From positions 842,869 through 906,868 of the forward strand of contig NZ_JACHJQ010000005.1 of the NCBI RefSeq assembly GCF_014203735.1: a stretch of DNA of 64,000 nt. Direction: 5' to 3'. The notes under the pieces were generated by a model, which was not told the DNA's origin, made no database searches, and saw only the letters and a list, made by a program, of their open reading frames with translations. The translations under genes were made by a program, and so were the position numbers. This stretch comes from Actinophytocola algeriensis. Its GTDB lineage: Bacteria; Actinomycetota; Actinomycetes; Mycobacteriales; Pseudonocardiaceae. Of the stretch, positions 1 to 17,095 are shown piece by piece. Every line of letters starts with the position of its first letter. The stretch's first letter is position 1.

Positions 1-1
1 G

Positions 2-2680
2 GCGCCGCCGGTGGTGTTCGCGCACACGGACGCGACCGTGACCGTGCTCGTGCACCACGTCCTCGCCGACGGCTGGAGCGTCGGCGTGCTGCTGCGCGAG
101 TTCGCGGACCTGTACGCGGGTGCCGACCTCGGTGCGGCGCCGAGTCCGGAGTGGATCGGGACCCGGCTCGCGGCGGTGTCGGGGTCCCGGGACGCGGCGC
201 TCGCCAGGGTGACCGCGCGGCTCGACGGCGCACCGGCCGAGCTGACGCTGCCCACGGACCTGCCGCCGGTCGTGGAGGCCGACGGCCGGGGTGCCCGGCT
301 GGTGTTCACGCTGTCGCAGGCGGCCGCGACCGCGGCGGAAACCCTGGCCCGGCAGGCGTCGGCGACCGTTCCGACGGTGCTGCTCGCGGCGTGGTCGCTC
401 ACCGTGGCGCGCCGCGCCGGAGCGGCCGACCTCGTGCTCGGCGTCCCCGCGGCCGGGCGGTTCGAGGCCGGCATGGACGGGATCGTCGGGTTGTACACGC
501 GGGTGGTGCCGGTGCGGTGCCGGATCGCGGGCGACGGCGCGCCGACCGCGTTCGTCCGTGCGTCGGCGGCGGCGATGGCCGACGCCGTTGCCGATGCGGA
601 CCTGCCGTTCGAGGACGTCGTCGCCGCGCTCGGCCACACCGGCGACACGGGGCACAACCCGGTGGCACAGTTCGGTTTCGCGGCCCACCACGAGCTGGTG
701 CCGTCCACCGTGGGGCCGTGGCACCTCCACGAGGGGCACTGCGCAGGCGCGGTGTTCGACGCGTTGCTGTACCTGCGCACGTGGTCGGCGCGGCCCCGGT
801 TCGCACTGGAGTACGCGACCTCGGTGCTGACCGCGGCCGACGCGGGGGAGCTGGCGTCGTCGTTCGAAGCCGTGCTCGTGGAGCTGGCCACCGCGGCCAG
901 GGTCGACGACGTGACGGGTCTGTCCGCCGCGCAGGCCGCGCGTCTGCGGGAGCTGGGCGCGGGTGGCGAGTTCGCCACCGCCGACGACCTGTGGAGCGCC
1001 TTCGTCCGCCACGCCGCCGCGACCCCGGACGCACCGGCCGTCACCGACGAGCACGAGAGCCTGACCTACGGGCAGCTGCACGACCGGGCGCTCGCGCAGG
1101 CCGCCGCACTGCACGCGTGCGGGGTGGGTGCCGGCGACCGGGTCCTGCTGGACGTGACCCGCTCGGTCGCGGAAGCGGTCGCGGTGCTGGGCATCGCGCG
1201 GATCGGCGCGGCCTACGTGGCGGTCGACCGCACGGCGACGGCCGAGCAGCGCGCCCACCTCGCGCGGGCCGCGACCCCGAGGGCCCGCATCGCGGATCGC
1301 CCGGCGGAGCCGGAGTGGACACACATCCCGGACTGCCCGGCCACGGCGGCCTGCGAGCCGCCACCGCACACCCCCGACCCCGCCGGTGTCGCCTACGTGT
1401 CGTTCACCTCGGGGTCCACCGGTACGCCGAAGGGCGTCGTCATCCCGCACCGCGCGGTGCTGCGGCTCGCGGCCGACCCGAACCTGTTCGCCGACCGGGA
1501 CGGCATGTCCTTCCTGCGGCTCGCGCCGATGGCGTTCGACGCGTCCACCCTCGAACTGCTCGTCCCCCTCGCGAGCGGGCACGCCGTCCGCGTCCACCCG
1601 CCCGGCGACCCCACGCCGCAAGGGCTCGCGGACTTCCTGCGTGGCAGCGGTGTCACCCACCTGTGGCTGACGTCCGGCGTCTTCCACCTCGTCGCCGAGC
1701 ACCGGCCCGACGCGTTCGTGGGCCTGCGTCAGGTGTTCACCGGCGGCGGGGTCGTGTCGCCGCCGCACGTGCGCCGGGTCCTCGAGCACTGTCCCGGCCT
1801 GCGCGTCACCAACGGCTACGGCCCGACCGAGAACACGACGTTCACCACGACCTTCGACCTCGACCACGCGTCCGCGGTGCCCGACCCGCTGCCGATCGGC
1901 ACGCCGGTGCACGGCACCACCCTCCGGGTCGTGGACCGGGCGGGCAGGCTCGTGCCGCCCGGTGCGGTCGGCGAACTGCTGGCGGCCGGGCCCGGCCGCG
2001 CCGACGGGTACCTCGCCGACGCCGAACGCACCGCCGCCGCGTTCGGGACCGACGGGTACCGGACCGGTGACCTCGTCCGCTGGGACGCCGCCGGGCGGCT
2101 GCGTTTCCTCGGGCGCAACGACAAACAGGTCAAGATCGCCGGGCACCGCGTCGAGCTGGCCGACGTCGAACGGCGGATCCGGGACCAACCCGGCGTCCTC
2201 GACGTGGTCGTCTTCCTCGCGGGTGACGAACCGGCCGCCAAGCGGCTGTGCGCCGCGGTGAAGGCCGAGCCCGGCACGGACCCGGTGCCCGCCGCGCGGA
2301 CGGCCGCCGAAGGGGGGCTCGCCCCCTACGCGCGTCCCCAGCAGTGGTTCACCGTGACCGAGTTCCCGTTGGACCGCAACGGGAAGGTCGACCTCCGCGC
2401 GCTCGCCGCCACACCGTCCACTCCGGACGCGGTCGCCGAGCGAGCCCCCGCTCTCGACGTCGAAACCGTGATCGTCGACGCCTGGACCGAGGCGCTCGGC
2501 ACCGACGACTTCGACCTCGACGAGGGCTTCTTCGACGTCGGCGGCGACAGCCTCAGCCTCGCCGTCGCCCGCAAGCTGATCCAGCGGGGGCTCGGCGGCC
2601 GGCCGCTGCCCCTCACCGACCTGTACCGCTTCCCGACCGTGCAGTCGCTCACCCAGCACCTGGCAGGAACACACTCATGA
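2..2680 (+). CDS. NRPS module C-A-T (5' end outside window)
   Basis: The frame is open to the left edge, so the N-terminus is missing; 892 residues are visible. A condensation domain begins just before its HHxxxDG motif (HHVLADGWS, about residues 18-26). The adenylation domain follows (about 330-800) with SGSTGTPKGV, FDAS, YGPTE, YRTGDL and NGKVD cores. A carrier domain ends the protein with DVGGDSL, the phosphopantetheine Ser near visible residue 850. Aligning to the GrsA pocket gives the code D-A-L-W-F-G-G-T-F-K, one or two changes from the known valine code DAFWIGGTFK, so valine (or a similar branched residue) is inferred. No epimerase or thioesterase is present. The stop overlaps the next start (ATGA), so it is translationally coupled to the PKS gene and should hand an aminoacyl or peptidyl chain to its KS. 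Confidence 0.93.
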   Translation, partial: APPVVFAHTDATVTVLVHHVLADGWSVGVLLREFADLYAGADLGAAPSPEWIGTRLAAVSGSRDAALARVTARLDGAPAELTLPTDLPPVVEADGRGARLVFTLSQAAATAAETLARQASATVPTVLLAAWSLTVARRAGAADLVLGVPAAGRFEAGMDGIVGLYTRVVPVRCRIAGDGAPTAFVRASAAAMADAVADADLPFEDVVAALGHTGDTGHNPVAQFGFAAHHELVPSTVGPWHLHEGHCAGAVFDALLYLRTWSARPRFALEYATSVLTAADAGELASSFEAVLVELATAARVDDVTGLSAAQAARLRELGAGGEFATADDLWSAFVRHAAATPDAPAVTDEHESLTYGQLHDRALAQAAALHACGVGAGDRVLLDVTRSVAEAVAVLGIARIGAAYVAVDRTATAEQRAHLARAATPRARIADRPAEPEWTHIPDCPATAACEPPPHTPDPAGVAYVSFTSGSTGTPKGVVIPHRAVLRLAADPNLFADRDGMSFLRLAPMAFDASTLELLVPLASGHAVRVHPPGDPTPQGLADFLRGSGVTHLWLTSGVFHLVAEHRPDAFVGLRQVFTGGGVVSPPHVRRVLEHCPGLRVTNGYGPTENTTFTTTFDLDHASAVPDPLPIGTPVHGTTLRVVDRAGRLVPPGAVGELLAAGPGRADGYLADAERTAAAFGTDGYRTGDLVRWDAAGRLRFLGRNDKQVKIAGHRVELADVERRIRDQPGVLDVVVFLAGDEPAAKRLCAAVKAEPGTDPVPAARTAAEGGLAPYARPQQWFTVTEFPLDRNGKVDLRALAATPSTPDAVAERAPALDVETVIVDAWTEALGTDDFDLDEGFFDVGGDSLSLAVARKLIQRGLGGRPLPLTDLYRFPTVQSLTQHLAGTHS

Positions 2681-5535
2681 CAGACAGCAGTGACATCGCG
2701 ATAGTCGGCATGGCCGGCCGCTGGCCCGGCGCCACGACCGTGGAGCAGCTGTGGTCGAACATCTCGGCCGGCCGGGTCACGATCACCGAGCTGACCCGCG
2801 GCGAGCTGGTCGCGGCCGGGGTGGCCGAGGAGACCCTCGACGACCCGGCCTACGTACCCGCCCGCGGCACCATCGCCGACCCGGACCGGTTCGACGCGGA
2901 CTTCTTCGGCATCCCACCGAAAGAGGCCGCGATCATGGACCCGCAGCACCGGCTGCTGCTGCAGACCGCGTGGGAGGCGCTCGAGTCGGCCAACCTGACC
3001 GGTGACGCACCGTTCGGCCGCGTCGGCGTGTTCGCCGGCGCCGGGTTCAACTACTACCTGCTCAACCACGTCCTGGCGCGACCGGAGGTCGTCGACACGC
3101 ACGGCCTGCTGTCGGTGGTGCTGGGCAACGAGAAGGACCACCTGGCGGCGAAGCTCGCCTACCGGCTCGACCTCGGCGGCCCCGCCGTCACCGTGCAGAC
3201 CGCGTGCTCCACCTCGCTCGTCGCCGTGCACCTCGCGTGCCAGAGCCTGCGGTCCGGTGACGCGGACGTGGTGCTGGCCGGCGGCGCGTGCGTCGCCGTG
3301 CCGCAACAGGCGGGCTACACCTTCGAGCCGAAGGGGATCACGTCACCGGACGGGGCGTGCCGGCCGTTCGACGCGGGCGCGGGCGGCACGGTGCCGGGCA
3401 ACGGCGTCGCGCTGGTCGCCATGAAACGGCTCGCGGACGCGACCCGCGACGGCGACACCGTCTACGCGGTGATCAAGGGCTCGGCCATCAACAACGACGG
3501 CGGCGCCAAGGTCGGCTACACCGCGCCGGGCATGGCGGGCCAGGTCGACGTGCTCGCCAGGGCGTACGCCGCGGCCGGGGTGGATCCCGCGTCCGTCGGC
3601 TACGTCGAGGCCCACGGCACGGCGACCGAGATGGGCGACGCGATCGAGCTGGCCGCGCTCGCCGAGGTGTTCGGCGCGGCGGCCGCCTGCTCGCTGGGCT
3701 CGGTGAAGGCGAACATCGGTCACCTGGACGCGGCGGCCGGGGTCACGGGGTTGATCAAGGCCGCGCTGGCGCTCCACTTCGGACAGATCCCGCCGCTGGC
3801 GGCGCTGAAGCAGCCGCGGCCCGAGCTGCTGGACGGGTCGACGCCGTTCACCGTCGACCCGGCCGGCCGGGCGTGGGACGACGGCCGGGTGCGCCGGGCC
3901 GGCGTCAGCTCGTTCGGTCTCGGTGGCACGAACGCGCACGTGGTACTGGAGGAGCACACCCCGGCCCGGCCGGCAGCGTCTGATGTGGACTCCCGGGAGG
4001 CGGTCCTGACCGTCTCGGCCCGGACACCGGAGGCGTTGCGGGAGTCGGCGGACCGGCTCGCCGAGCACCTGCACGACGAGCTGGACCTGCACGACGTGGC
4101 GCTGACCCTGCAGTCGCACCGCAGGCACTTCCCGCACCGGCTCGCGGTCACCGCCGCCGACGTGCCCGCCGCGGTCAAGGCCCTCCGCAAGGGACGGGGC
4201 CGGGAACGGTTGCGGCGCCCCAAGGTCGTGTTCCTGCTGCCCGGCCAAGGCGCGGAAGCGGCGGGGATGTCGGCGGAACCGTACGACCGGTACCCCTCGT
4301 TCCGCGCGGACATCGACCGCGGCGCCGAGCACCTGCGGGACCTGACCGGCATCGACCTGCGGGACGTGCTGGTGGGCGCCGACCCGCGGAACCTGGTGCA
4401 CCGCACCGACATCACCCAGCCCGCGCTGCTGCTGCACTCCTACGCGTTCGGCAGGCTGCTGATGTCCTGGGGTGTGCTGCCGTCCGCGCTCGTCGGGCAC
4501 TCGGTCGGCGAGCTGGCCGCCGCGTGCCTCGCGGGCGAGCTGGACCTGACCGACGCGCTGCGGCTCGTCGCCACCCGCGGCCGGCTCATGCAGGAGGCAC
4601 CCGAGGGCGGGATGCTCGTCGTGATGGCGGCACGCGCCGAGGTCGAGGCGCACCTGGGCGGTGACACGGGCGGTGGCCTGGATGGCGACCTGGACGTCGC
4701 GGCCGTCAACGCGCCGGACGTCACCGTCGTCGCGGGACCGGTCGCGGCCCTGGCCGCCCTGCGTGCCAGGCTCGACGTGGCCGGGATCACGCACCGCGCG
4801 ATGCCCGCGACCAGGGCGTTCCACTCCCGCATGATGTCCGGCGCGTCCGACGGACTGGCGGCCGTGCCGGTGACGCACCAGCCCAGGAAGATCGACGTGA
4901 TCAGCAGTGTGACGGGCGCGGTGCTGCCGCGTGGGCAGGTGCGTGACGCCGGGTACTGGCCGGAGCAGCTGCGCCGCCCGGTCGACTTCCTCGCCGCGAT
5001 CACCACCGCCGCCGCGCGGGGCCCGGTCGTGTTCGTCGAGGTAGGCCCTGGCACCGCCCTCACCGGCTCGGCGCGGCAGATCGCCGCCGACGCCGCCACC
5101 GTGGCCGTACAGCCGCGCCGGTCCGGCGCCCGGGACGTCGCCGCGGCCGCGGGAACCCTGTGGTCCCTCGGTGTTCCGGTCGACTGGGCCGCGGCGCGCG
5201 GCGTGCGGGCGGCCCGCGTCACGTTGCCGACGTACCCGTTCGCGCGGACCCGCCACTGGCTCGACGCGGCACCCGCCACCCCGGCGGCGGTGCCCGAGGC
5301 GCCCGCCCCGGACCCCGTTCTCGACCAGGTGCTCACGCTGTGGCGGTCGATGCTCGGCGACCCCGACATCGACGCCGACACGAGCTTCTACGCGGCGGGC
5401 GGGGAGTCGTTGCTGTTCATCAGGATGGTGTCGCGCGTCCAGCGCACGTTCGGCGTCACGGTGCCGGTCGGCGACCTGGCGTCGTCGCCGACACCACGCA
5501 CGCTGGCCGCACAGCTCACGGAGGCGCGGGCATGA
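2677..5535 (+). CDS. Type I PKS module KS-AT-ACP
   Basis: 952 residues, started at the ATG that overlaps the upstream stop. The KS domain spans about 6-430 with active Cys177 (TACSTS), His313 (EAHGTA) and His349 (NIGH), so it looks active. The AT domain (about 520-800) has GHSVG with Ser609 and the AFHS motif at His716, which in this family marks malonyl-CoA. There is no KR, DH or ER, so the added ketide unit should stay a beta-ketone unless another enzyme acts. A C-terminal carrier domain has GGESL with Ser911; Glu replaces the more usual Asp before Ser. It sits between two NRPS genes with 4-base overlaps on both sides, which supports a single hybrid assembly line. Together the KS and upstream carrier imply an NRPS-to-PKS transfer. 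Confidence 0.94.
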   Translation: MTDSSDIAIVGMAGRWPGATTVEQLWSNISAGRVTITELTRGELVAAGVAEETLDDPAYVPARGTIADPDRFDADFFGIPPKEAAIMDPQHRLLLQTAWEALESANLTGDAPFGRVGVFAGAGFNYYLLNHVLARPEVVDTHGLLSVVLGNEKDHLAAKLAYRLDLGGPAVTVQTACSTSLVAVHLACQSLRSGDADVVLAGGACVAVPQQAGYTFEPKGITSPDGACRPFDAGAGGTVPGNGVALVAMKRLADATRDGDTVYAVIKGSAINNDGGAKVGYTAPGMAGQVDVLARAYAAAGVDPASVGYVEAHGTATEMGDAIELAALAEVFGAAAACSLGSVKANIGHLDAAAGVTGLIKAALALHFGQIPPLAALKQPRPELLDGSTPFTVDPAGRAWDDGRVRRAGVSSFGLGGTNAHVVLEEHTPARPAASDVDSREAVLTVSARTPEALRESADRLAEHLHDELDLHDVALTLQSHRRHFPHRLAVTAADVPAAVKALRKGRGRERLRRPKVVFLLPGQGAEAAGMSAEPYDRYPSFRADIDRGAEHLRDLTGIDLRDVLVGADPRNLVHRTDITQPALLLHSYAFGRLLMSWGVLPSALVGHSVGELAAACLAGELDLTDALRLVATRGRLMQEAPEGGMLVVMAARAEVEAHLGGDTGGGLDGDLDVAAVNAPDVTVVAGPVAALAALRARLDVAGITHRAMPATRAFHSRMMSGASDGLAAVPVTHQPRKIDVISSVTGAVLPRGQVRDAGYWPEQLRRPVDFLAAITTAAARGPVVFVEVGPGTALTGSARQIAADAATVAVQPRRSGARDVAAAAGTLWSLGVPVDWAAARGVRAARVTLPTYPFARTRHWLDAAPATPAAVPEAPAPDPVLDQVLTLWRSMLGDPDIDADTSFYAAGGESLLFIRMVSRVQRTFGVTVPVGDLASSPTPRTLAAQLTEARA

Positions 5536-7469
5536 CCGCCATGGACACAGCCACCATCGACACGGCCACCGTCGACACGGCCACCATCGACACGGCGACG
5601 GCCGCCGCTGCCGCGGCGGTCCTGGTGCACCGGCTCGAGCGACGGGACACCGTGACGGTCGCGCTGCCCGACCGCACGGTGTCGGTGACCGTCCGACCGG
5701 GCAGCACCCTCGCCGAGGTGGTCGACGGTTTCCGCCCGGCCACGGCACCTCCCGACGTCGTGTTCGGGTCCGACGCGACGGTCGCCGACCTCGGGCCGCA
5801 CACGCTCGGGTTCCGCTTCGAGTGGCCGGAGCACACGACCGAACGCCTCGCGACCCTGCTCGACGGCCTCCGCGCGGGCTTGCCCGTCGGCGCGTGCCGG
5901 GTCGTCGGGCCGGTCGAACGGTCGGCCCTCCTCGCGTTCAACCCGCCGCTCGGCACGCCACCGCGGGTCCCGGTGCACGAGCTGATCCGCCGTCAGGCCA
6001 TGGCGACCCCGGACGCGGTGGCGTTGCGCGACGCGTCCGGCGAGCGCACCTACCGGCAGCTCATGGCCGACGCCGCGGTGGTCGCGGGCCGTCTGCGGAG
6101 CGAGGGCGTCGGGCCGGGCGCGGTCGTCGCGCTGTGCACGGAACGCTCCGGAGACATGGTGGCCGCGGTCCTCGGCATCCTGCTGGCCGGGGCCGCGTAC
6201 CTGCCGCTCGACCCCGCGCATCCCCAGGCGCGGCTGGACCTGATGCTCGCGACGGCCGGTGCCGAGCTGGTACTGGTGAGCCCGGCCGCCGCGCCGGTGT
6301 TCGCCGACTCCGCCGTACCGGTCCGCCCGCTGCGTGCGCAGGGCGATCCGCTGTCGTGGCGGGACTTCTCCACCTCGGTCGACGGCCTGGCGTACGTGAT
6401 CTTCACGTCCGGCTCGACCGGGCAGCCCAAAGGTGTGGAGATGACGCACGCGAGCCTCGCGAACCGGCTCGCGTGGATGCGGGACGAGTACCGGCTCGGT
6501 GCGGACGACGTGGTGCTGCACAAGACGCCGTACACGTTCGACGTGTCGGTGTGGGAGCTGCTGTGGGCGTTCGCGGCCGGTGCGCGGCTGGTGGTGGCGC
6601 CGCCGGAGGCGCACCGCGACCCGCAGGAGCTGGTCGAGCTGATCGTGCGCGAGCGGGTCACGACTGTCCACTTCGTACCGTCGATGCTCGCGCTGTTCGT
6701 CGCGGAGGACGAGGTGGCGCGGTGCGTGTCGCTGCGGCGCGTCATCTGCAGCGGCGAGGCCCTGCCACCGAAGGTGGTGAACAAGCTGACGGCCGCGTTG
6801 CCCGCTGTCGAGGTGCACAACCTGTACGGCCCGACCGAGGCGGCGATCGACGTGACGGCGTGGCCGTGCCGCCACCCGGAGCCCGCCGACGGGGTGCCGA
6901 TCGGCCGCCCGATCGCGAACGTGGCGGCGTACGTGCTCGACGAGACCGGTGACCTGGCGCCGATCGGGGTGCCCGGTGAGCTGGTCCTGGGTGGACACTG
7001 CCTGGCTCGCGGGTACGCGTCCCGGCCGGACCTGACGGCGGAGCGGTTCCCGCACGTCGAGGTCGCGGGCAGGCGGGAACGCGTGTACCGCACCGGTGAC
7101 GAGGTGTGGTGGTCACCGGAGGGGCACCTGAACTACGTGGGCCGCATCGACACCCAGGTCAAGATCCGCGGCCAGCGCGTGGAACTGAGCGAGATCGAGT
7201 CGGTGCTGAACCGCCACGCCGCGGTCGCGAACTCGGCCGTGCTGCTCCGCACCGACCTGGGCGCGACCCCGGCACTGGTGGCCTACGTGGTGCCGGAACC
7301 GGGTGCGGACCCGTCGGACAAGGAGCTGCGCGCACACCTCGCCACCTACCTGCCCGACCACATGGTGCCGCTGCGGTACGTGTCGCTGCCCGAGCTGCCC
7401 GCCACCGCGAACGGCAAAGTGGACCGCCGGGCCCTGCCCGCGCCGGCGCCGAGGACCCGCCGCCGCTGA
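5532..7469 (+). CDS. Stand-alone NRPS adenylation protein, predicted serine-specific
   Basis: 645 residues; start is the ATG in the ATGA overlap with the PKS gene. Residues 1-150 are not a recognisable domain: a DTATI/DTATV repeat (about 4-21), an Ala run, then a short region resembling the tail of a condensation domain. The adenylation domain follows (about 155-640): FTSGSTGQPKGV, FDVSVWELLW, YGPTEAAID, YRTGDEVWW, GQRVEL and NGKVDRR. The pocket code reads D-V-W-H-I-S-L-I-D-K, one change from the published serine code DVWHLSLIDK. The protein ends right after the A10 core with a basic tail and has no carrier domain, so it must load a carrier on another protein, perhaps one outside the window. 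No thioesterase follows. Confidence 0.9.
   Translation: MTAMDTATIDTATVDTATIDTATAAAAAAVLVHRLERRDTVTVALPDRTVSVTVRPGSTLAEVVDGFRPATAPPDVVFGSDATVADLGPHTLGFRFEWPEHTTERLATLLDGLRAGLPVGACRVVGPVERSALLAFNPPLGTPPRVPVHELIRRQAMATPDAVALRDASGERTYRQLMADAAVVAGRLRSEGVGPGAVVALCTERSGDMVAAVLGILLAGAAYLPLDPAHPQARLDLMLATAGAELVLVSPAAAPVFADSAVPVRPLRAQGDPLSWRDFSTSVDGLAYVIFTSGSTGQPKGVEMTHASLANRLAWMRDEYRLGADDVVLHKTPYTFDVSVWELLWAFAAGARLVVAPPEAHRDPQELVELIVRERVTTVHFVPSMLALFVAEDEVARCVSLRRVICSGEALPPKVVNKLTAALPAVEVHNLYGPTEAAIDVTAWPCRHPEPADGVPIGRPIANVAAYVLDETGDLAPIGVPGELVLGGHCLARGYASRPDLTAERFPHVEVAGRRERVYRTGDEVWWSPEGHLNYVGRIDTQVKIRGQRVELSEIESVLNRHAAVANSAVLLRTDLGATPALVAYVVPEPGADPSDKELRAHLATYLPDHMVPLRYVSLPELPATANGKVDRRALPAPAPRTRRR
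5541..5600 (+). repeat. 15-bp in-frame tandem repeat
   Basis: About four copies of a 15-bp unit of the form gacacrgccaccrtc encode DTATI/DTATV near the N-terminus of the serine adenylation protein. Repeat number could vary by slippage without breaking the frame. Confidence 0.8.
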
Positions 7470-9416: not shown

Positions 9417-10319
9417 TCAGCGCCGCAGACCGTGGAGGCGGTGGATCCGGTCGGTGGGTGACGGGTGCGTGGCGAGCATCCGAGCCTTGACGGACTCCTG
9501 ACGCCGGCCGTCGGCCGCGATCCACCGGTGCAGGACCTCGACGAGATGCGGGCCGTAGCCGAGCTCGGCCGCCGTGCGGTCCGCGCGAAGTTCACCGATG
9601 CGGCTCGCCCAGGCGAGGAGCGGCGCGGTGAGCGGGATCAGGAGGAGCCAGAAACCGACGAACGCCAGCATGGTCAGGACGACGAGGCTGAGCAGCAACG
9701 CCACGAGTGCACCCGTGCCGCCGCCGAACCGGGCGAACGCGTCCGCCACGGCCAGGATGAACCGCACCGCGATCCGGGCCAGGAACGCGGCTCCACGGGC
9801 AGGCAGCGCGTACCACCACGACAGGATGCTCACCGTCGGATGTCCGGACAGGTGGTGCCCGAGTTCGTGCGCGAGCACGGCTTCCAGCTGTTTCGGCGGC
9901 AGCCGCAGGGACGTCTGGGTGACCGCCACTGTCCGCCCACCCGCGGCGAAGGCGTTGAGCTCGTGGGAGTCCTCCACCATCAACACGAACCTGCCGGGGG
10001 CGACCCCCGCTGCCTGGCACACCGACTGCCAGGGCTGCCTGAGGTGGTTCATCTCGTCCGGCCCCGGCGGTCGCACCCTGAACATCAAGCGGGACACGGT
10101 CGTCTCGACCGACGGCACGAACAACACCGCACCAGAGGATATCCACAGCACGGGTATCAGCCAGGGTATGTCCGGCAGAATGTAGGAACCCGCCAGGGCC
10201 ACCACGGCGAGACTGCACAGGAAAGCGGGCAATCCCAATAGCACGGACATCGAACTGGACGCGTCCGGTCGCCGCCGCATTGCCGGTCTCGGGGAGTACG
10301 GATCCATCTGGTTCGCCAT
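9417..10319 (-). CDS. M48 family (HtpX-like) membrane metalloprotease
   Basis: 300 residues. The zinc motif HELGH is at residues 151-155 (Glu152 catalytic), and the ELRAD segment near residue 245 supplies the third ligand Glu. Hydrophobic segments lie near residues 25-65 and 170-225, giving the membrane-anchored layout of HtpX/Ste24-like proteases that clear misfolded membrane proteins. The AFAAGG motif before the zinc site is also typical. The ATG is preceded by gaggga on the minus strand. It is divergent from the kinase-helicase operon across a 322-bp gap, and a functional link is possible but unproven. Confidence is high for the fold, low for the substrate. Confidence 0.9.
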   Translation of the reverse strand: MANQMDPYSPRPAMRRRPDASSSMSVLLGLPAFLCSLAVVALAGSYILPDIPWLIPVLWISSGAVLFVPSVETTVSRLMFRVRPPGPDEMNHLRQPWQSVCQAAGVAPGRFVLMVEDSHELNAFAAGGRTVAVTQTSLRLPPKQLEAVLAHELGHHLSGHPTVSILSWWYALPARGAAFLARIAVRFILAVADAFARFGGGTGALVALLLSLVVLTMLAFVGFWLLLIPLTAPLLAWASRIGELRADRTAAELGYGPHLVEVLHRWIAADGRRQESVKARMLATHPSPTDRIHRLHGLRR

Positions 10320-10641: not shown

Positions 10642-11634
10642 GTGAGCGGTGGCGTGGAACGACAAAGCGAATCGGCGCGAACGGATGACGGTCACGTCGT
10701 GCACGGAGATGTGCACGGGAATGTCCTCCAGGCGGGAATCATCGGCGGGGATGTTCACCTGCACGAGAATTCTCCGAAAGTCCACGTCGTAACGACTCGT
10801 GACCCCGTGCCGGTGTTCGGCGCCGGCGTGGAGGTGTCGGTCGGTGATCTCACCTATCTCGTCCACGACCACATGGTGGCCGAGGAATTCGCGGCCGGCG
10901 GTGGAGCCGTGTGCCGGCGAGCCAGAGTCAGTTCGGTGCGGGGACGGCCGCCCGGGTTCGGCTGGTTCCGGCAGATCGACGACCGGGACGGCGGCGGAGC
11001 GGGCCGGACGTTGGTGGACGAGTACGCGCTCCTGCGTGAGTACCTGCCGGACGCGCCACTGCAGTTCCACCGCGACGACCGCACCACCACGCTGGTGACC
11101 CGGTGGCCCGGCGAGCGTTCCGGTCGGCCGAGCGACAGCCTGCACCAGGTGCTCGGCGACGGCACCGGGCGGGACCACGGCCAAACCTCCCGATGGTGTA
11201 CCGGTCTCGCCGGGTTGTGCGACTCGCTCGGCGCACTCCACGATCGGGGCCGCGCGCATCGCGCGCTGTCTCCGGCCGCGCTCATCGCGCGTGACGACGG
11301 GCGAATCGTGCTCCGTGACCTCGGGCTCGCCGCGCAGGCGGGCCGCGCGGGCGAGAACCCCGGCGAGTACCAGACTCCCGAGCAGCGCAGGCGTGGCGCA
11401 GCAGGCCCTGGACCGTGGACCGACGTGCGCCAGGTGGCGGCGATCGCGCATCTCGTTCTCACCGGTCGCGTACCGCATGCCACCGCGCCGCCGCCGTTGC
11501 GGAGGTGGGAGCCCGCCGTTCCCGGTGAGATCGCGACCGTGGTCGACGCCGCTCTCGCGGCCGATCCCGCGGCCCGTCCGGACATCCGGTCGCTCGGCGT
11601 CGCGTTGCACCTGGCCCAGCACCACATGGACTGA
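10642..11634 (+). CDS. Degenerate protein kinase with N-terminal strand-repeat motif
   Basis: 330 residues from a GTG (a second GTG at 10654 is possible). Residues about 15-38 form an alternating pattern (DVHGNVLQAG, then GGDVHLH) like the short Gly/Val repeats seen at the N-terminus of many actinobacterial conflict-type proteins. The rest resembles a Ser/Thr kinase C-lobe: LHDRGRAHRALSPAALI stands where HRDxKxxN should be, followed by DLG for DFG, then a QTPEQ/APE-like block and the C-lobe helices. The catalytic Asp and the metal-binding Asn are both replaced by Ala, the Lys is lost, and no glycine-rich loop is visible. It should therefore be a pseudokinase, perhaps a sensor or scaffold. It is 11 bp upstream of the helicase gene and probably co-expressed with it. 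Confidence 0.8.
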   Translation: MSGGVERQSESARTDDGHVVHGDVHGNVLQAGIIGGDVHLHENSPKVHVVTTRDPVPVFGAGVEVSVGDLTYLVHDHMVAEEFAAGGGAVCRRARVSSVRGRPPGFGWFRQIDDRDGGGAGRTLVDEYALLREYLPDAPLQFHRDDRTTTLVTRWPGERSGRPSDSLHQVLGDGTGRDHGQTSRWCTGLAGLCDSLGALHDRGRAHRALSPAALIARDDGRIVLRDLGLAAQAGRAGENPGEYQTPEQRRRGAAGPGPWTDVRQVAAIAHLVLTGRVPHATAPPPLRRWEPAVPGEIATVVDAALAADPAARPDIRSLGVALHLAQHHMD

Positions 11635-11645
11635 GGGGAGACCAG

Positions 11646-14552
11646 GTGCGCTTTGTCCGGCTGATCGGATCCGTCACCATCGTCGTGTCGGCGGAATCCC
11701 AGGCTCACCTGCACCGCAAGCGCGTGGACCACCCGACCCTGCCAGGATCCTTCGCGCAGGTCCTGCGCGAGTTGAACGAGCGGCCCGACGGTGTCCCGGT
11801 CGTGGTCGACCACCCCGGCCGCCTCGGCGACCGGAGCCTCCTGGTCCACGGGTCGACCTGGGCGATGCGCCTGTACCCGACCAGGGAGTTCAAGGGAACA
11901 CGTCGCGGGTACACGGTCGCGTCCATCGACCCCCTCCGGCTGCGAGACCACCACCGGCTCGCCGAGGGCTACCTGTCGGTGCGACCCCTGTCCTGGGAGC
12001 AGGTACCGACGATCAGGGACCTGGGTCCGCACACCGACGCCCAGTACGAACGGCTGCTCCACGAATGGCAGACCCCGGCCAGGGGACGCCCGGTGTCCCG
12101 TCCGGAGTCGCACCGGCTGCCGCCGGCGCACACGGCGTTCCTGGACACGGTGGACCAGGTGATCGACGCCAACGAACGGATCACCACCGCGACGGCCCGG
12201 GCCCAGCGCCCCTTTCCCTACCGCGCGGTGAAACCGGTCGGCGAGCGCAGGCACGGCACCCATTCGGTCTACGAGTTCGTCCTCACCGCAGGCCGCCCGG
12301 AGGACGACGCGTTCGTGCAGATCCGGGGCGAGCGGGAGCAACGCGGTCAGGTGACGCGGGCCGTGCGCGGCGCGGTGACCGTCCGGTTCGACCGGCCCAT
12401 CGACTGGGACCGGATCGCGAAGGTCGGCGAGCTGGAACTCACCCCCAGCACCGTCGTCTTCCGCAAGCAACGGGAGGCGGTGACGACGCTCCGCGACGGG
12501 AAGTCGCGCAACCCCGCCGCCCTGGACGTGCTGGTGGACCACCGGACCCAGCGGTCGGACCCGGCACCGGACCGTCCGACGATCGACCTCGACCAGAGCC
12601 AGGTCCGCGCGTTCGGCAGCGCGCTCGGTGTGCCGGACCTGATGGTGATCCTGGGACCACCCGGCACCGGCAAGACCAGGGTGATCAGCCAGATCGCCAA
12701 CGCGGCGGCCGTCGGCGGTCCCCATCGCCCTGCGCAGCGGGTGCTGATCACGAGCCACACCAACCGCGCGGTCGACAACGTGCTGCAACGGCTTCCCGGT
12801 CACCTCGTCGTCGTGCGGGTCGGCAGCGAGGGCTCGGTGACCGACGAGGGCCGGCCCTACCTGCTGGAGACGCAGGCGCGCGAGCTGCGCACCCGGATCA
12901 TCGAGACGGTCGGCGCCACCATCGGCGGCTTGGGGGACCTGGAGATCGCCGATCAGTGGGCGTCCGAACTCGGCGAGCGCACCGGGGTTCTCACCGCCGC
13001 CATGACGGCGGTGGCCCAGGCCAGGCAGAGGCTCGACGGCGTTCGCCGTGCCGGTGGCGGCGCCGCCCAGGTGGAGCTCGACCGCATCGCCACGGCATGG
13101 CGACGGCGTGCCGCCCGGCTCTCACGGGTGAACCGTTCGTTGCACCGCGCCGCGGCACGTGCCGGGAAAGCCGGACTGCTCAGCGGCTTCTGGCAGGGAC
13201 GACGAACACGTCTGCTCTCCCGGGCCCAACAGCTGCACAGCGAGCAGAACGCGGCGAACGTCGCGCTCGCCGCGGCCGAACGGCACCTCGAGGAGGTCAC
13301 GCGAGACCTGCCCGCGGTGCGCGAAGCCGGCGCCCACCTCGCCGCGGCCACCGCCCACCTCGGCCAGGTCCAGGACAGCGCGCTCACCGCCGCGCACTGT
13401 GCGCGCGCGGCCGTGGGCAACCAGCAGGCACCGCCGCCGGTACGGGACGGGAGTACGCCCGAGGAGACCCACTCCGACCTGACCGCGCTGCTCGCGTGGC
13501 TGGCCCACTGGCTCCCGTTGCTGGGCAGGCGAGCCCGGCTGCTGGCCGAATGGCACGCCGAGGTGTCCAGCGCCACCGGGCAGCTGAGCCCCGAGCTGGT
13601 CCGGTACGCCGACGTCATCGCGGCCACCGCGATCGGCACCGCGTCGCGCCCCGAACTGTCCGAGATGGACTTCGGGCTGGTGATCGTGGACGAGGCGGGC
13701 CAGATCGGCACCGCGGACGTGCTCGTCCCGCTGGTGCGGGCCCGGCGCGCCGTCCTGGTCGGCGACCACCAGCAACTGCCGCCCTACCTGGATTCCGAGG
13801 TCGAGGTGTGGGGCAAGGGCATCGACGACCCCGCCGTGCGCGGGCTCCTGTCGCACAGCGCGCTGGAGCTACTGGTGGACGGGCTGCCGCAGGCGAACGT
13901 GGTGCCGCTGACCGAACAACGCCGGATGCCGCTGGTGATCGCCCGGTTCATCTCCGACACCTTCTACGAGGGCCTGCTCGAGACCGCCGTGGCGCGAGAC
14001 CACACCGACCAGCTGTTCACCAGCGCGTTCGCATTCGTCGACACCGCACGGCTGCCGGCCGGCACACAGCACGAGCAGCCGGTCCGCGGCGAGGACCGCG
14101 GCCTGCGCGGCTACCGCAACCCGGCCGAGGCACGCCTGCTGGTGAAGCTCGCGGCACACTACGACCAGCTCGGCCAGGACTGGGCGGTGATCGTGCCCTA
14201 CCGCGCCCAGATCAAGGAGATCACGAACGCGCTGATCGACCTCATCGGCCAGGCCGACAAGGTCCGGCTCAACGTCGGCTCGGTGGACTCCTTCCAGGGC
14301 GGCGAGCGCGACGTCATCCTGTACGGGTTCACCCGCAGCAACGCGGCGGGGAACGTCGGCTTCCTCGCGGAGCTGCGGCGCGCCAACGTCGCGTTCACCC
14401 GCGCGAAGCGGCAGCTGGTACTCGTCGGTGACCTCGGCACGCTGACCACCGCGCGGGACCAGCCGTTCCGGGAACTGTCCCGCGCTCTGCGCGACTACGT
14501 GGCCCGGTGGGGCGACATCCGCCAGTACGAGGAGATCGACGCGAAACTGTGA
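11646..14552 (+). CDS. UPF1/DNA2-NAM7-type superfamily 1 helicase
   Basis: 968 residues from a GTG with a strong RBS (gaggggag) 6-11 bases upstream. A 320-residue N-terminal region has no family I recognise. A Q-motif-like DQSQVRAF is followed by Walker A GPPGTGKT (337-344, Lys343). Motif II is DEAG (682-685), then GDHQQLPP (III), EQRRMP (IV), VDSFQGGERD (V) and VAFTRAKRQL (VI). These are the AAA_11/AAA_12 signatures of UPF1-like helicases, so ATP-driven movement on DNA or RNA is expected. About 300 residues rich in Ala, Arg and Leu, probably coiled coil, separate motif Ia from motif II. The gene is the middle member of a three-gene unit and overlaps the next start by GTGA. Confidence 0.93.
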   Translation: MRFVRLIGSVTIVVSAESQAHLHRKRVDHPTLPGSFAQVLRELNERPDGVPVVVDHPGRLGDRSLLVHGSTWAMRLYPTREFKGTRRGYTVASIDPLRLRDHHRLAEGYLSVRPLSWEQVPTIRDLGPHTDAQYERLLHEWQTPARGRPVSRPESHRLPPAHTAFLDTVDQVIDANERITTATARAQRPFPYRAVKPVGERRHGTHSVYEFVLTAGRPEDDAFVQIRGEREQRGQVTRAVRGAVTVRFDRPIDWDRIAKVGELELTPSTVVFRKQREAVTTLRDGKSRNPAALDVLVDHRTQRSDPAPDRPTIDLDQSQVRAFGSALGVPDLMVILGPPGTGKTRVISQIANAAAVGGPHRPAQRVLITSHTNRAVDNVLQRLPGHLVVVRVGSEGSVTDEGRPYLLETQARELRTRIIETVGATIGGLGDLEIADQWASELGERTGVLTAAMTAVAQARQRLDGVRRAGGGAAQVELDRIATAWRRRAARLSRVNRSLHRAAARAGKAGLLSGFWQGRRTRLLSRAQQLHSEQNAANVALAAAERHLEEVTRDLPAVREAGAHLAAATAHLGQVQDSALTAAHCARAAVGNQQAPPPVRDGSTPEETHSDLTALLAWLAHWLPLLGRRARLLAEWHAEVSSATGQLSPELVRYADVIAATAIGTASRPELSEMDFGLVIVDEAGQIGTADVLVPLVRARRAVLVGDHQQLPPYLDSEVEVWGKGIDDPAVRGLLSHSALELLVDGLPQANVVPLTEQRRMPLVIARFISDTFYEGLLETAVARDHTDQLFTSAFAFVDTARLPAGTQHEQPVRGEDRGLRGYRNPAEARLLVKLAAHYDQLGQDWAVIVPYRAQIKEITNALIDLIGQADKVRLNVGSVDSFQGGERDVILYGFTRSNAAGNVGFLAELRRANVAFTRAKRQLVLVGDLGTLTTARDQPFRELSRALRDYVARWGDIRQYEEIDAKL

Positions 14553-15757
14553 ACAGGAACCGACTATTCTCGTTCCCCGAGCAGCGGGTGCTGGAGGATG
14601 CCGCCTTCGCCAGGGACGTGCTGCCCACCCAGATCTTCGCGCTGTTGCTGCCGGTCTGGTCGGTCACCATCCAGGCCGACATCACCGAGGCCGAGGACTA
14701 CGAGCTGATCGACCGGTTCCTCGCGCGGGGCATCGCCGAGGGCGGTTTGACCACCACCGCGGAGCTGGCCGACTTCTACGCGCTGGAGCCGGAACTCGTC
14801 GACCGCGCGCTCCGGGCCCTCGCCGCGATCGGGCACGTGGCCGACGACTCCGGACGATGGGCCCTCACCGGTCTCGGCCTGCGGTCGGTGCGCGACCGGA
14901 AGCGGTACATCGTCACCCGCGGGGACCGGCGCAAGCTCTACTTCACCGCGTTCGGCTCGAAGCCGCTGACCCGGCCGTACTACGACACACGCAAGGTCAC
15001 GCTCGTCACCGCAGAAGAGGTGCCCGGCATCCGGTCGGCGGACGGCCCGCGCTTCCACGAGTTGATGACCACCCGAGGGCTGGACGGGAACGCGTTGGAC
15101 GCGTTGGCCGCCAACCCGCAGCGCGACCGGTTCAACATGCCCGACCGCGTCGAGGGACTCCGGAGGCTCGGCTCGGACGAGCTGGTCTACCTCCCGGTGT
15201 ACGTCGTCCGTGGCCGCACACCACAGGGTAGGCAGCGCTACCTCGCGTACGGCCAGGTCTCCGCCGAGGCCGACCCCGACCTGAGCGACCTCGTCGACCG
15301 GACCCCGGAAGTGGTCACGGTGCTGGAAGCCGAGCTGACGACCGCCCGGCGCGAGAGCGACCTCGAACGCGTGCGAGCGTGGCTGCGCAAGCAGAACCTG
15401 GGGAAGCAACACGTGGCGCGGGTGTCGTCCGACGAGCTGCTCCGGGTGCGCCTTTCTCCGGACCGCTTCGGCGGCGACGGCCTTTCCCTGAATCGGGTCG
15501 GCTCCTTCGTCGTCCAGGCGAACAGCCTCTTCCAACTGTGGTGCGACGACGTCGCGGTACGCCGTCTCGCGCTGCTCAGCCGCATCGACACCACCCTGGC
15601 CGCTTATTCCAAAGTGGACAGAACCGTGGTGGTCGACCGGATCGCCCGCATCGCCCGGCAACTCGACCTCGGCGAGATCAGCCTGGCCGAGCTGCGCGAC
15701 GCGGCCGTCGCGAACAAGAGAACCGCGCTGGCGGCCCAGCTGAACGGGTTCCTGTGA
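14549..15757 (+). CDS. Winged-helix protein of unknown function, third gene of helicase operon
   Basis: 402 residues, started at the GTG that overlaps the helicase stop. I do not recognise the full-length family. Residues about 60-125 look like a winged helix (LTTTAELADFYALEPELVDRAL, then a short wing ending in LTGLGL). A middle block from 135 (RKLYF... TRPYYDTRKVTLV) and a C-terminal helical part near 280-400 have no motif I can name. There is no nuclease signature such as D-ExK or HKD, no signal peptide and no membrane segment. Translational coupling implies it works in fixed ratio with the helicase, perhaps as target-recognition or effector subunit. Function unknown. Confidence 0.75.
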   Translation: MNRNRLFSFPEQRVLEDAAFARDVLPTQIFALLLPVWSVTIQADITEAEDYELIDRFLARGIAEGGLTTTAELADFYALEPELVDRALRALAAIGHVADDSGRWALTGLGLRSVRDRKRYIVTRGDRRKLYFTAFGSKPLTRPYYDTRKVTLVTAEEVPGIRSADGPRFHELMTTRGLDGNALDALAANPQRDRFNMPDRVEGLRRLGSDELVYLPVYVVRGRTPQGRQRYLAYGQVSAEADPDLSDLVDRTPEVVTVLEAELTTARRESDLERVRAWLRKQNLGKQHVARVSSDELLRVRLSPDRFGGDGLSLNRVGSFVVQANSLFQLWCDDVAVRRLALLSRIDTTLAAYSKVDRTVVVDRIARIARQLDLGEISLAELRDAAVANKRTALAAQLNGFL

Positions 15758-15778: not shown

Positions 15779-17095
15779 TCAGGCGACCTCCACGTAGTCG
15801 AGTTCCGCCCAGCGGCTCCGGAACTGGAGGCGGACGGTGTTGAAGCCCGCCGCCAGGTTCACGTCGACGGACACCTGGGTCCAGTTGTCCCAACCGCGGT
15901 TGGGATACGTGACCGCCTGTGCCGCGCCGCCGTTCACCGTCAGGGTGTGCTGGGCGTCGCCGTAGCCCGCGGCGTATCCGATGTGGACGGTGTAGTTCCC
16001 GGCCACCGGGGCGAAAACGGTCATGTCCACCCAGCTGTCGGCGTAGTCGATGCCCGCGGCGACCGCGCCCTGGGACGCCCCCGCCGCGCCGGTGCGGATG
16101 TGGGCGTGGTTCAGCGTGCCGCGTTCTGCCTCGTAGCGGACGCGGCTGCCGCGCACCACCGGGTAGTCGTTGGCCCAGCCCAGCGCGGCCGTGTACATGC
16201 CGCGGCCGCCGCCGGAGAGGTGGCCGTGGAAGAAGATCCGGTCGCCGACCACGTCCGCGCCGCCCGGGCCGTTGACGGCGCCGTCCACCGACGCCGTGGT
16301 GAGCAGCGGGCGGTACGCGCGGGTGTACGGGCCGGTCAGCGAGCCGGACACCGCGTAGCTCGTGTGGTAGTTGCCGGTGGTGTACACGCCGGCGGAGTAG
16401 AACAGCACGTAGTGCGACGGCCGCCGCACCAGCACCGGCGCCTCGATCACGCCTTCGTCCTCCGGGCGGTTGTTGCGCAGCAGCTCGACCCGGTTGCCGG
16501 TGAACGTCACGCCGTCCGCCGCGGTCGGCTGCAGCCAGATGATCGTGGGCTGGCCGATCGCGTTCCCGTCGTTCTTGTACAGCAGGTACCGCGCGCCGCC
16601 TGCGTCGACGAAGCTCGACGGGTCGATGTCACCGCCTTCGCCCGCGTTGCACACGAGCGGCTGGCCGGACGTGGGCACGAACGGTCCGGCGGGGCTGTCC
16701 GCGAGCGCGGCGCCGAGGCACATGCGGCCGGTCGCGGTGCTCGGGCCGGTGAAGTACATGAGGTACCTGCCGTCCGCGCGCCGCGACACGTCCGGTGCCC
16801 AGAACCCGCCGTTGCCCGCCCACGCGGGCTTCTGCGGCAGCGCGTCACCGCGGACGGTCCACGGCCCGGTGGGCGTGGACGCGGTCGCGTACGGGACGCG
16901 GCCGGGGGAGGAGCTGGTCGAGTAGGCGTAGTACGTGCCGCCGACCTGGAGCACGTCCGGGTCGGGGAAGTCCCGGTTGATCACCGGTGCCGGCGGCACC
17001 GTGCGGACCGGACCGCTCGCGGCGGTGGCCGGGGTGGCGAGACCGCACGCCACCGCGGCCACCATGGACAGGACAACGGCCCGTGACAGATTCAC
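15779..17095 (-). CDS. Secreted GH43-type glycosidase with C-terminal CBM
   Basis: 438 residues with a Sec signal peptide (cleavage after about TPATA, residue 25). The five-bladed GH43 catalytic part (about 35-300) shows the expected acids: NRDFPDPDVL (base Asp), DIDPSS (pKa modulator) and VIEAPVL (acid Glu). This family removes arabinose or xylose units from plant polysaccharides. From about residue 305 a jelly-roll CBM6/35-like module begins (YEAERGTLNHAHIRTG) and ends in RSRWAELDYVEVA. The start is a GTG. It is convergent with the helicase operon and divergent from the MFS gene. No sugar regulator is adjacent. Substrate is not resolved. Confidence 0.9.
   Translation of the reverse strand: MNLSRAVVLSMVAAVACGLATPATAASGPVRTVPPAPVINRDFPDPDVLQVGGTYYAYSTSSSPGRVPYATASTPTGPWTVRGDALPQKPAWAGNGGFWAPDVSRRADGRYLMYFTGPSTATGRMCLGAALADSPAGPFVPTSGQPLVCNAGEGGDIDPSSFVDAGGARYLLYKNDGNAIGQPTIIWLQPTAADGVTFTGNRVELLRNNRPEDEGVIEAPVLVRRPSHYVLFYSAGVYTTGNYHTSYAVSGSLTGPYTRAYRPLLTTASVDGAVNGPGGADVVGDRIFFHGHLSGGGRGMYTAALGWANDYPVVRGSRVRYEAERGTLNHAHIRTGAAGASQGAVAAGIDYADSWVDMTVFAPVAGNYTVHIGYAAGYGDAQHTLTVNGGAAQAVTYPNRGWDNWTQVSVDVNLAAGFNTVRLQFRSRWAELDYVEVA

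What the first reader, a model, noticed from the sequence alone, without database searches (positions are those of the whole stretch)
10642..15757. Three-gene unit: pseudokinase, UPF1-like helicase, winged-helix protein
The three genes are spaced 11 bp apart and then overlapped by GTGA, so they are almost certainly one translational unit. A strand-repeat pseudokinase plus an SF1 helicase with a large insert plus an unknown winged-helix protein is not a combination I can name. SF1 helicases joined to sensor-like proteins are frequent in anti-phage and conflict systems, so a defence or RNA/DNA quality-control role is plausible. The divergent M48 protease may or may not belong.
Basis: partly seen in the sequence, partly recalled or inferred. 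Interest (0 to 1): 0.78.

Follow-up and report, generated by a model that had tools for sequence, protein, structure and literature searches.

The report
Mokosh-like immune operon with amyloid motif
Three neighbouring bacterial genes look like a rebuilt version of a known anti-phage system (Mokosh) whose nuclease is gone and whose output end is a swappable module, here a short amyloid-type signalling motif like the one used in animal necroptosis, so the operon may be a virus alarm that triggers cell death through partner proteins.

Summary
The three genes are real and form one unit: K (pseudokinase, 10642-11634), H (UPF1-like SF1 helicase, 11646-14552) and W (winged helix, 14549-15757). The combination can be named. 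H and K correspond to the helicase and kinase parts of MkoA, and W to the N-terminal part of MkoB, of Mokosh type I anti-phage systems. Differences: the kinase is a separate gene and lacks catalytic residues, W has no detectable PLD nuclease, and K carries a variable N-terminal module. Across relatives this slot holds SEFIR, TIR, nucleoside phosphorylase, BTAD or a tentative Mrr-like nuclease, or, in the window's clade, a RHIM/BASS3-like amyloid signalling motif. The same motif ends a SEFIR protein and a Bell-like protein elsewhere in this genome, and a SEFIR protein beside the operon in the closest relative. The unit is patchy: 33 of 297 family genomes carry most of W, 2 of 6 in the genus. 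Best reading: a nucleic-acid sensor that signals through an amyloid-type motif to SEFIR/Bell-like effectors (abortive infection). Anti-phage activity and amyloid formation are untested. New variant of a known kind.

The parts
9417..10319 (-). M48-family metalloprotease (300 aa), divergent from K; probable accessory gene
   Evidence: Pfam Peptidase_M48 1.4e-21; homologues adjoin K-H-W in 6 of 36 W-bearing loci: window, L032, L041, L044 (overlapping K by 4 bp), L047, L059
10642..11634 (+). K: 330-aa pseudokinase with N-terminal amyloid-type motif; counterpart of the kinase part of MkoA
   Evidence: PADLOC MkoA 1.8e-8; hhalign to MkoA kinase 98.6%; in 30 K proteins the HRD Asp is lost in 29, the Lys two residues on and the catalytic Asn in 30, VAIK Lys is Arg in 28; alpha-C Glu and DFG Asp kept in 30
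10696..10761 (+). RHIM/BASS3-like motif VVHGDVHGNVLQAGIIGGDVHL (K residues 19-40)
   Evidence: 46.8 bits with a matrix built from relatives' K motifs; maximum of 19,280 shuffled proteins 17.3; conserved island
10828..11607 (+). beta-rich segment and pseudokinase domain of K (approximate)
11646..14552 (+). H: 968-aa UPF1/IGHMBP2-like SF1 helicase, counterpart of the helicase part of MkoA
   Evidence: Pfam AAA_11 4.2e-36, AAA_12 1.8e-34; PADLOC MkoA 4.7e-101; hhalign to MkoA 100%; PDB SMUBP-2/UPF1 by sequence
12654..12677 (+). Walker A of H (GPPGTGKT)
   Evidence: sequence; residues invariant or nearly so in 27 homologues
13689..13700 (+). motif II of H (DEAG)
   Evidence: sequence; invariant or nearly invariant
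14549..15757 (+). W: 402-aa winged-helix protein, counterpart of MkoB without its PLD nuclease
   Evidence: PADLOC MkoB in 31 of 31 aligned W; hhalign to MkoB 97% over residues 23-137 only; no PLD among the 18 Pfam families listed for 31 W; model pLDDT 88.2, the 50 Foldseek rows are winged-helix-type targets with short alignments
14705..14896 (+). winged-helix segment of W (approximate)
   Evidence: secondary structure of the model; type of Foldseek targets (no query ranges given)

Best explanation
K-H-W is a Mokosh-derived immune unit that has exchanged its built-in PLD nuclease for a plug-in output. Inferred mechanism: H (helicase), with W (winged helix), binds an invader-derived or damaged nucleic acid; ATP turnover changes the complex; the pseudokinase K relays this as a switch, not by phosphorylation; K's N-terminal module is then exposed and clustered. 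In many relatives that module is itself a candidate effector (SEFIR, TIR, nucleoside phosphorylase, tentative Mrr-like nuclease). In the window's clade it is a RHIM/BASS3-like motif that would nucleate amyloid-type assembly of proteins bearing the same motif: the SEFIR protein and the Bell-like protein encoded on another contig of the same genome. Their activity would deplete a metabolite or damage the membrane and stop phage production. The M48 protease would modulate activation or shut-off. Shown here: homology to Mokosh, loss of kinase catalytic residues and of PLD, conserved gene order, swapping of the module, the shared motif and its carriers. Inferred: sensing, amyloid templating, cell death, anti-phage effect, role of M48.
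For: Mokosh kinship. Dead kinase. No PLD. Conserved order. Swapped N-termini: SEFIR in 12 and TIR_2 in 11 of 30 K members at 0.01; PNP_UDP_1 5.7e-34 in L118, BTAD 1.2e-19 in L115; PNP in L211, TIR_2 6.5e-31 in L223, Mrr-like segment in 12 loci. Motif and carriers, scored with relatives' K motifs only: NLR-type protein 36.6, SEFIR beside K-H-W of the closest relative 32.9, Bell-like 29.1, SEFIR of own genome 28.9 bits, null maximum 17.3; the four K proteins whose called starts cut the motif score 32.8 to 53.3 once extended in frame. SEFIR is fused to K in 13 relatives by alignment, adjoins K-H-W as a separate SEFIR-motif gene in the closest relative, and is a separate SEFIR-motif gene in the window's genome. 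Nearest neighbours: 13 of 136 match PADLOC bSEFIR (no control set). BASS motifs were described at NLR N-termini and at C-termini of BELL, less often TIR and CHAT, proteins (PMC7889193, passages read).
Against: No experiment. Bell-like genes do not track the motif type of K: 11 of 13 motif-K genomes have a hit (10 if G132's motif-only hit is dropped) against 14 of 17 genomes with other K, and 143 of 297 overall. SEFIR with the motif was recognised only in the window's genome and G132 among 32 genomes (only matches reaching the C-terminus were looked at), so for most motif-K genomes the partner is not identified. In the window the partners are unlinked. In Actinomadura the neighbouring or fused module is a BTAD transcription-type domain, which fits regulation as well as death. 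No relative was found in the held plasmid, phage and viral collections. Module types follow deep clades with the minimum of 5 changes, so swaps are few and old.
Confidence: 0.5

Rival explanations
1. Mokosh-like direct interference: H and W act on phage RNA or DNA themselves or with an unlinked nuclease, and K's N-terminus only localises the complex. No cell death and no amyloid.
For: H keeps the helicase motifs and resembles MkoA. In one other actinobacterial family a Mrr-like nuclease segment sits on K, so nucleic-acid cleavage may be an output.
Against: No nuclease family was recognised in the window's three proteins. TIR, SEFIR and phosphorylase modules are not nucleases, and the motif is shared with SEFIR and Bell-like proteins.
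Confidence: 0.2
2. RNA/DNA quality-control or stress unit of the host (UPF1/IGHMBP2-like) with no dedicated antiviral role.
For: H is close in sequence to SMUBP-2 and UPF1. No relative was found in mobile-element collections.
Against: Patchy: 2 of 6 genomes of the genus and 33 of 297 of the family have most of W; pieces of the window's right flank lie at scattered places in five other genomes of the genus; bSEFIR-type neighbours; module swapping.
Confidence: 0.12
3. Developmental or secondary-metabolism signalling: K-H-W senses nucleic-acid state and controls transcription or programmed cell death during differentiation.
For: Large synthase-type ORFs lie to the left; BTAD domains are fused to or beside K in Actinomadura; filamentous actinomycetes are prominent among the named carriers (names, growth form recalled).
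Against: BTAD was seen only in the two Actinomadura loci; SEFIR, TIR, phosphorylase and Mrr-like modules were seen elsewhere; neighbouring genes differ between most loci shown.
Confidence: 0.12
4. The motif is a structural N-terminal beta hairpin and its likeness to BASS3/RHIM is incidental.
For: The motif is short; no fibre data exist; the single-sequence structure model of K was uninformative.
Against: Outside K it scores highest at the ends of proteins of the expected types (NLR N-terminus, SEFIR and Bell-like C-termini), 11 or more bits above the maximum of 19,280 shuffled proteins. One further protein (L042/L113, residue 58 of the gene call) scores as high and is of unknown type.
Confidence: 0.15

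Closest known systems
Mokosh type I (MkoA + MkoB)
   Same: SF1 COG1112-type helicase with a kinase domain, followed by an MkoB-type protein with a related N-terminal region; same order
   Different: Kinase split off as its own gene and without catalytic residues; MkoB-like protein has no detectable PLD nuclease; extra N-terminal effector/adaptor module or motif; M48 gene beside some loci
Bacterial amyloid NLR signalosomes (BASS3 motif, BELL effectors)
   Same: RHIM-like motif at the N-terminus of the putative receptor side and at the C-terminus of candidate effectors; the same genome has an NB-ARC/TPR protein with this motif
   Different: Receptor would be a pseudokinase-helicase-winged helix unit, not an NB-ARC/NACHT protein; partners are unlinked in the window
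bSEFIR defence protein (PADLOC) and TIR/SEFIR effectors
   Same: SEFIR domains fused to K in 13 relatives and in neighbouring genes
   Different: In the window SEFIR is in trans and would be recruited through the motif
RIPK1/RIPK3 necrosome (RHIM plus kinase); recalled, with RHIM background from passages of PMC7889193
   Same: RHIM-type motif joined to a kinase fold
   Different: Motif is N-terminal, the kinase lacks catalytic residues, and it is coupled to a helicase; no homology of the whole architecture is claimed
UPF1/IGHMBP2 (SMUBP-2) helicases
   Same: SF1 helicase core
   Different: Operon partners of Mokosh type

Membership tests
Mokosh type I | SF1 (COG1112-type) helicase related to MkoA | tested here: met
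   PADLOC MkoA 4.7e-101; hhalign 100% to three MkoA. Definition from passages of PMC11672841.
Mokosh type I | Ser/Thr kinase domain on MkoA | tested here: not met
   Related domain present (98.6%) but encoded as a separate gene and without catalytic residues; the three canonical MkoA used keep them
Mokosh type I | MkoB with PLD nuclease | tested here: not met
   W matches MkoB only N-terminally; no PLD in Pfam for 31 W and none among the 50 Foldseek rows listed of 1252; canonical MkoB L084 and L130 match PLDc_2
Mokosh type I | Anti-phage activity | not testable with these tools
   needs plaque assays
Bacterial amyloid NLR signalosome | BASS/RHIM-like motif at N-terminus of the receptor and C-terminus of an effector | tested here: met
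   Matrix scan against shuffled proteins; effector unlinked in the window, adjacent in the closest relative. The label BASS3 rests on resemblance, not on the published profile, which was not available.
Bacterial amyloid NLR signalosome | NLR (NB-ARC/NACHT) receptor | tested here: not met
   K, H and W are kinase-like, SF1 helicase and winged-helix proteins; NACHT only as a sub-threshold P-loop echo in H
Bacterial amyloid NLR signalosome | Motif forms templating amyloid | not testable with these tools
   needs peptides and cells
Active Ser/Thr kinase | VAIK Lys, HRD Asp, DFG Asp | tested here: not met
   Of the three only the DFG Asp is kept in the window's K
Active SF1 helicase | Walker A, motif II and other helicase motifs | tested here: met
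   Invariant or nearly invariant columns in 27 homologues; activity itself not tested

The most novel reading that the evidence does not exclude
This is an NLR-independent amyloid immune signalosome in bacteria: a helicase-based nucleic-acid sensor whose pseudokinase carries a RHIM-like motif that templates SEFIR- and Bell-type death effectors, a necrosome-like RHIM-plus-kinase arrangement built on a Mokosh chassis. The same chassis accepts interchangeable outputs (TIR, SEFIR, phosphorylase, nuclease, amyloid motif), as NLRs do.
Probability: 0.4. Interest if true: 0.9.

Novelty: new variant of a known kind. Interest (0 to 1): 0.74.

Why it matters
[quoted passage not shown] This operon is a concrete, small, testable candidate. 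It also shows how an anti-phage sensor can shed its nuclease and plug into a shared effector network, and it puts a RHIM-type motif next to a kinase fold in bacteria. Present Mokosh profiles match the proteins only in part, so such units may go uncounted as systems (inference). Searches of the held open-access library for Mokosh with pseudokinase (0 papers) and for Mokosh with Streptomyces (5 papers, listing only) showed no title or abstract start describing it; most subscription papers and all bioRxiv preprints are not held.

Tried and rejected
Single-sequence AlphaFold model of K: useless, pLDDT 34.5. My visual guess that the gene upstream of K in Actinomadura L116 holds a Bell domain: not supported by a Bell profile built from 14 sequences; its C-terminal motif does resemble the N-terminus of the adjacent K (5 of 20,000 shuffles score as high). 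Bell-like genes as a discriminating partner: rejected, they are about as common with other K types. Mobile-element origin: no match to W in plasmids or phages and none of 36 viral candidates confirmed. Empty-site comparison: pieces of the right flank match at scattered places in five genomes of the genus, so no test was possible. First motif regular expression flagged no K motif and was replaced by a scored matrix; the first matrix was partly circular because it included partner sequences, so one search used relatives' K motifs only (7 distinct motifs from 8 loci); four K proteins were missed there because my gene calls start inside the motif, and were rescored after in-frame extension. A G114 SEFIR hit that reaches the end of the query carries no such C-terminal motif, and a weak G287 hit overlaps K's own motif. 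Mrr-like nuclease on K in one family: conserved residues, but Pfam Mrr_cat reaches only E 0.095 in one of the six Mrr-like K scanned, so tentative. Defence-neighbour scan: 136 nearest neighbours from 34 loci (L049 left out as near-duplicate, L053 and L064 as fragments, the 14 loci not included), no control set run.

Rows dropped: in the family survey 7 of the 40 genomes with a match were left out of the counts as short or weak W hits; L053 (G065) is counted among the 33 but has a truncated W and no H or K. L054's K is incomplete in my gene call, its N-terminus is not typed, and the tree labels it SEFIR. L043 and L063 have H and W without K. L217 was left out of alignment A8. The loci are not in the tree. 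Gene calls come from my own frame-composition script, so starts are approximate; some loci were fetched twice (by the genome search handles and by name), so the 964 proteins include duplicates.
Full report
WHAT IS THERE. The window holds three genes on the plus strand: K (10642-11634, 330 aa), H (11646-14552, 968 aa) and W (14549-15757, 402 aa). K and H are 11 bp apart and H and W overlap by GTGA. W should be read from 14549; the GTG at 14507 lies inside H and homologues start near the later codon. An M48 metalloprotease (9417-10319) runs the other way upstream and a GH43 gene (15779-17095, minus) lies downstream. The genome has 9.7 Mb in 23 contigs; the nearest named relative is an Actinophytocola bin, so it is taken to be an actinomycete of that kind.

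WHAT THE PROTEINS ARE. H has AAA_11 and AAA_12, resembles SMUBP-2 and UPF1 in the PDB by sequence and matches PADLOC MkoA at 4.7e-101; K matches the kinase part of the same MkoA profile at 1.8e-8 and W matches MkoB at 1.7e-15 over profile positions 8-272 of 610. For comparison I took three canonical pairs: two cyanobacterial plasmids and one actinobacterial genome, G489. Profile comparisons gave 98.6% for K against the MkoA kinase, 100% for H against the MkoA helicase and 97% for W against MkoB, the last only over W residues 23-137. All 31 W proteins of the alignment match MkoB. The canonical MkoB proteins L084 and L130 carry a PLDc_2 domain; no PLD family is among the 18 listed for 31 W proteins at E up to 1. 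A model of W built from 20 sequences is confident (pLDDT 88.2, pTM 0.78); the 50 PDB rows listed (of 1252, best E 7e-3) are mostly O-methyltransferases and MarR/MntR-type regulators, mainly with alignments of 64-86 columns, which I read as the winged helix since the table gives no query range.

K IS A PSEUDOKINASE. In 30 K proteins the HRD Asp is replaced in 29, the Lys two residues on and the catalytic Asn are absent in 30, and the VAIK Lys is Arg in 28. The alpha-C Glu and the DFG Asp are kept in all 30. The canonical MkoA kinases keep the catalytic residues (3 of 3). The window's K alone scores only E 0.15 against Pfam Pkinase; 23 of 30 members pass 0.01.

CO-OCCURRENCE AND SPREAD. W was sought in 297 genomes of the family: 40 match at 1e-3, in 16 of 46 genera; 33 of these cover most of W. 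Among the 33, H adjoins W in 32 and K adjoins H in 30, in the order K-H-W on one strand (K of L045 found by tblastn). L043 and L063 lack K; L053 has only a truncated W. In 150 genomes searched with H, 15 match at 1e-50 and all 15 have W. In the genus 2 of 6 genomes drawn carry it, and pieces of the window's right flank match at scattered places in the five others. Outside the family it occurs in Actinomadura and Streptomyces; in a draw of 394 class genomes 15 match at 1e-10, the own genome included. No relative was found in plasmid, phage or viral collections.

THE VARIABLE N-TERMINUS OF K. This is the main new observation. Of the 30 K proteins of the family, 13 (the window's clade) begin with a short motif, 13 by alignment with a SEFIR domain, 3 with a TIR domain and 1 (L054) is not resolved (Pfam SEFIR in 12 and TIR_2 in 11 members at 0.01). 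Elsewhere K begins with a nucleoside phosphorylase (L118 at 5.7e-34; L211 at 6.1e-32), a BTAD transcription-type domain (L115), a TIR domain (L223) or a segment with the residues of a Mrr-like nuclease (12 loci; GID and WQxK invariant in the 11 aligned; Pfam support weak). On a tree of H for 33 typed loci the module types fall into separate clades with 5 changes, the minimum for six states (quick search, long-branch warnings), so modules were exchanged rarely and then kept. Several of these types are also known from NLR proteins (recalled).

THE AMYLOID-TYPE MOTIF. In the 13 motif-type K proteins residues 19-40 are about as conserved as the pseudokinase (mean pairwise identity 0.54 and 0.56) while the stretches on either side are not (0.26, from 10 pairs, and 0.27). 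A matrix built only from relatives' K motifs (7 distinct ones) finds, among 964 proteins of the fetched loci and the window (duplicates included), the window's K (46.8 bits), the N-terminus of an NB-ARC/TPR protein of the same genome (36.6), the C-terminus of a SEFIR protein beside K-H-W in the closest relative (32.9), and the C-termini of two neighbouring genes of the window's genome, a 114-aa Bell-like protein (29.1) and a SEFIR protein (28.9); the best of 19,280 shuffled proteins is 17.3. The four K proteins whose called starts cut the motif score 32.8 to 53.3 once extended in frame. Four more proteins, of the loci L042/L113 (34.7), L057/L124, L059 and L039, also exceed the null and were not followed up. 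The two neighbouring effector candidates lie 6 bp apart on contig C2, away from the operon. The name Bell-like rests on size, motif position and likeness to the published description (PMC7889193, passages); no Pfam family matches. In Actinomadura L116 the gene directly upstream of K ends in a motif resembling K's N-terminus (5 of 20,000 shuffles as good). Thus SEFIR is found in cis on K, next door with the motif, or elsewhere in the genome with the motif, which is a fusion-type argument for coupling.

RESULTS AGAINST. Bell-like genes are not clearly commoner with motif-type K (11 of 13, or 10 without a motif-only hit) than with other K (14 of 17); 143 of 297 family genomes have one. SEFIR with the motif was recognised only in the window's genome and in G132 (two copies) among 32 genomes (only matches reaching the C-terminus were looked at). 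So for 11 of 13 motif-type genomes the partner is unknown or merely available. There is no functional evidence of any kind.

NEIGHBOURS. Of 136 nearest neighbours in 34 loci, 13 match the PADLOC bSEFIR profile and 6 are M48 proteases; the other nine PADLOC families listed match one or two members each (no control set). M48 adjoins motif-, SEFIR- and TIR-type units in varied positions, in L044 overlapping K by 4 bp, so the window's M48 is probably an accessory. A ParA-like/AAA cassette, with a TIR gene in three of the four, lies beside or near the unit in L047, L050 and L052 and beside the W fragment in L053, and a VWA-PP2C-kinase triad (TerY-type, recalled) follows one gene after it in L115.

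HOW IT MOST LIKELY WORKS. H with W is the sensor of foreign or aberrant nucleic acid; K is a switch that keeps some kinase-fold residues but no catalytic set; K's N-terminus is the output. In the window's clade the output is an amyloid-type motif recruiting SEFIR and Bell-like effectors. Steps shown: kinship, losses, order, swapping, shared motif. Steps inferred: sensing, templating, death, anti-phage effect.

MEMBERSHIP. It is not a Mokosh by definition: two defining features (kinase domain on MkoA, PLD nuclease; definition from passages of PMC11672841) were tested and not met. It is a Mokosh relative and may work as a sensor in the same way. It is not an NLR signalosome, since no NLR is part of it, but it may signal as one does. 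I therefore rate it a new variant of a known kind, with a real chance that its signalling principle is new for bacteria.

Noticed in passing
L131 (G542) and L132 (G457), about 1.2-8.3 kb: VWA (TerY-like, recalled) protein, kinase-like protein, 1124-1137 aa protein and a 482-aa protein matching the MkoB N-terminus in one row: possibly another Mokosh-like derivative.
   Followed up: partly
L115:12817-15726: VWA-PP2C-kinase triad one gene downstream of K-H-W in Actinomadura sp. NBRC 104425.
   Followed up: no
L118:13076-17071 and L211:2-3520: Large GGTGG (tubulin-like, recalled) protein near phosphorylase-type K-H-W in two genomes (one Streptomyces adustus, one of the same genus group as G489).
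   Followed up: no
L047, L050, L052, L053: Conserved cassette of ParA-like KGGVGR protein, 210-aa protein and about 1031-aa AAA protein (TIR gene in three) beside or near SEFIR-type K-H-W, or beside a W fragment in L053.
   Followed up: partly
L128:7377-8363 (own genome, contig C2): Two-gene unit of Bell-like and SEFIR proteins, both ending in the RHIM-like motif, without an NLR among the neighbours listed.
   Followed up: yes
L129:8995-11280 (own genome, contig C6): NB-ARC/TPR protein with the same motif at its N-terminus and no motif-bearing effector recognised beside it.
   Followed up: partly
L042:14361-15419 (also L113), L057:14916-17108, L059:1080-2063, L039:320-2413: Further proteins with a motif above the shuffled maximum, near but not part of K-H-W.
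   Followed up: no
L084:3454-12864 (Nostoc plasmid pNPM2): Canonical Mokosh type I pair next to CBASS-type genes (DncV-like, E2, JAB) on a plasmid typed as conjugative.
   Followed up: no
L046, L048, L051, L055, L056, L061: A second, divergent SEFIR-type gene stands beside SEFIR-type K, suggesting homotypic SEFIR-SEFIR pairing.
   Followed up: partly
window 1-7469: Left edge of the window holds large synthase-type ORFs of a biosynthetic-type cluster, apparently unrelated to the operon.
   Followed up: no
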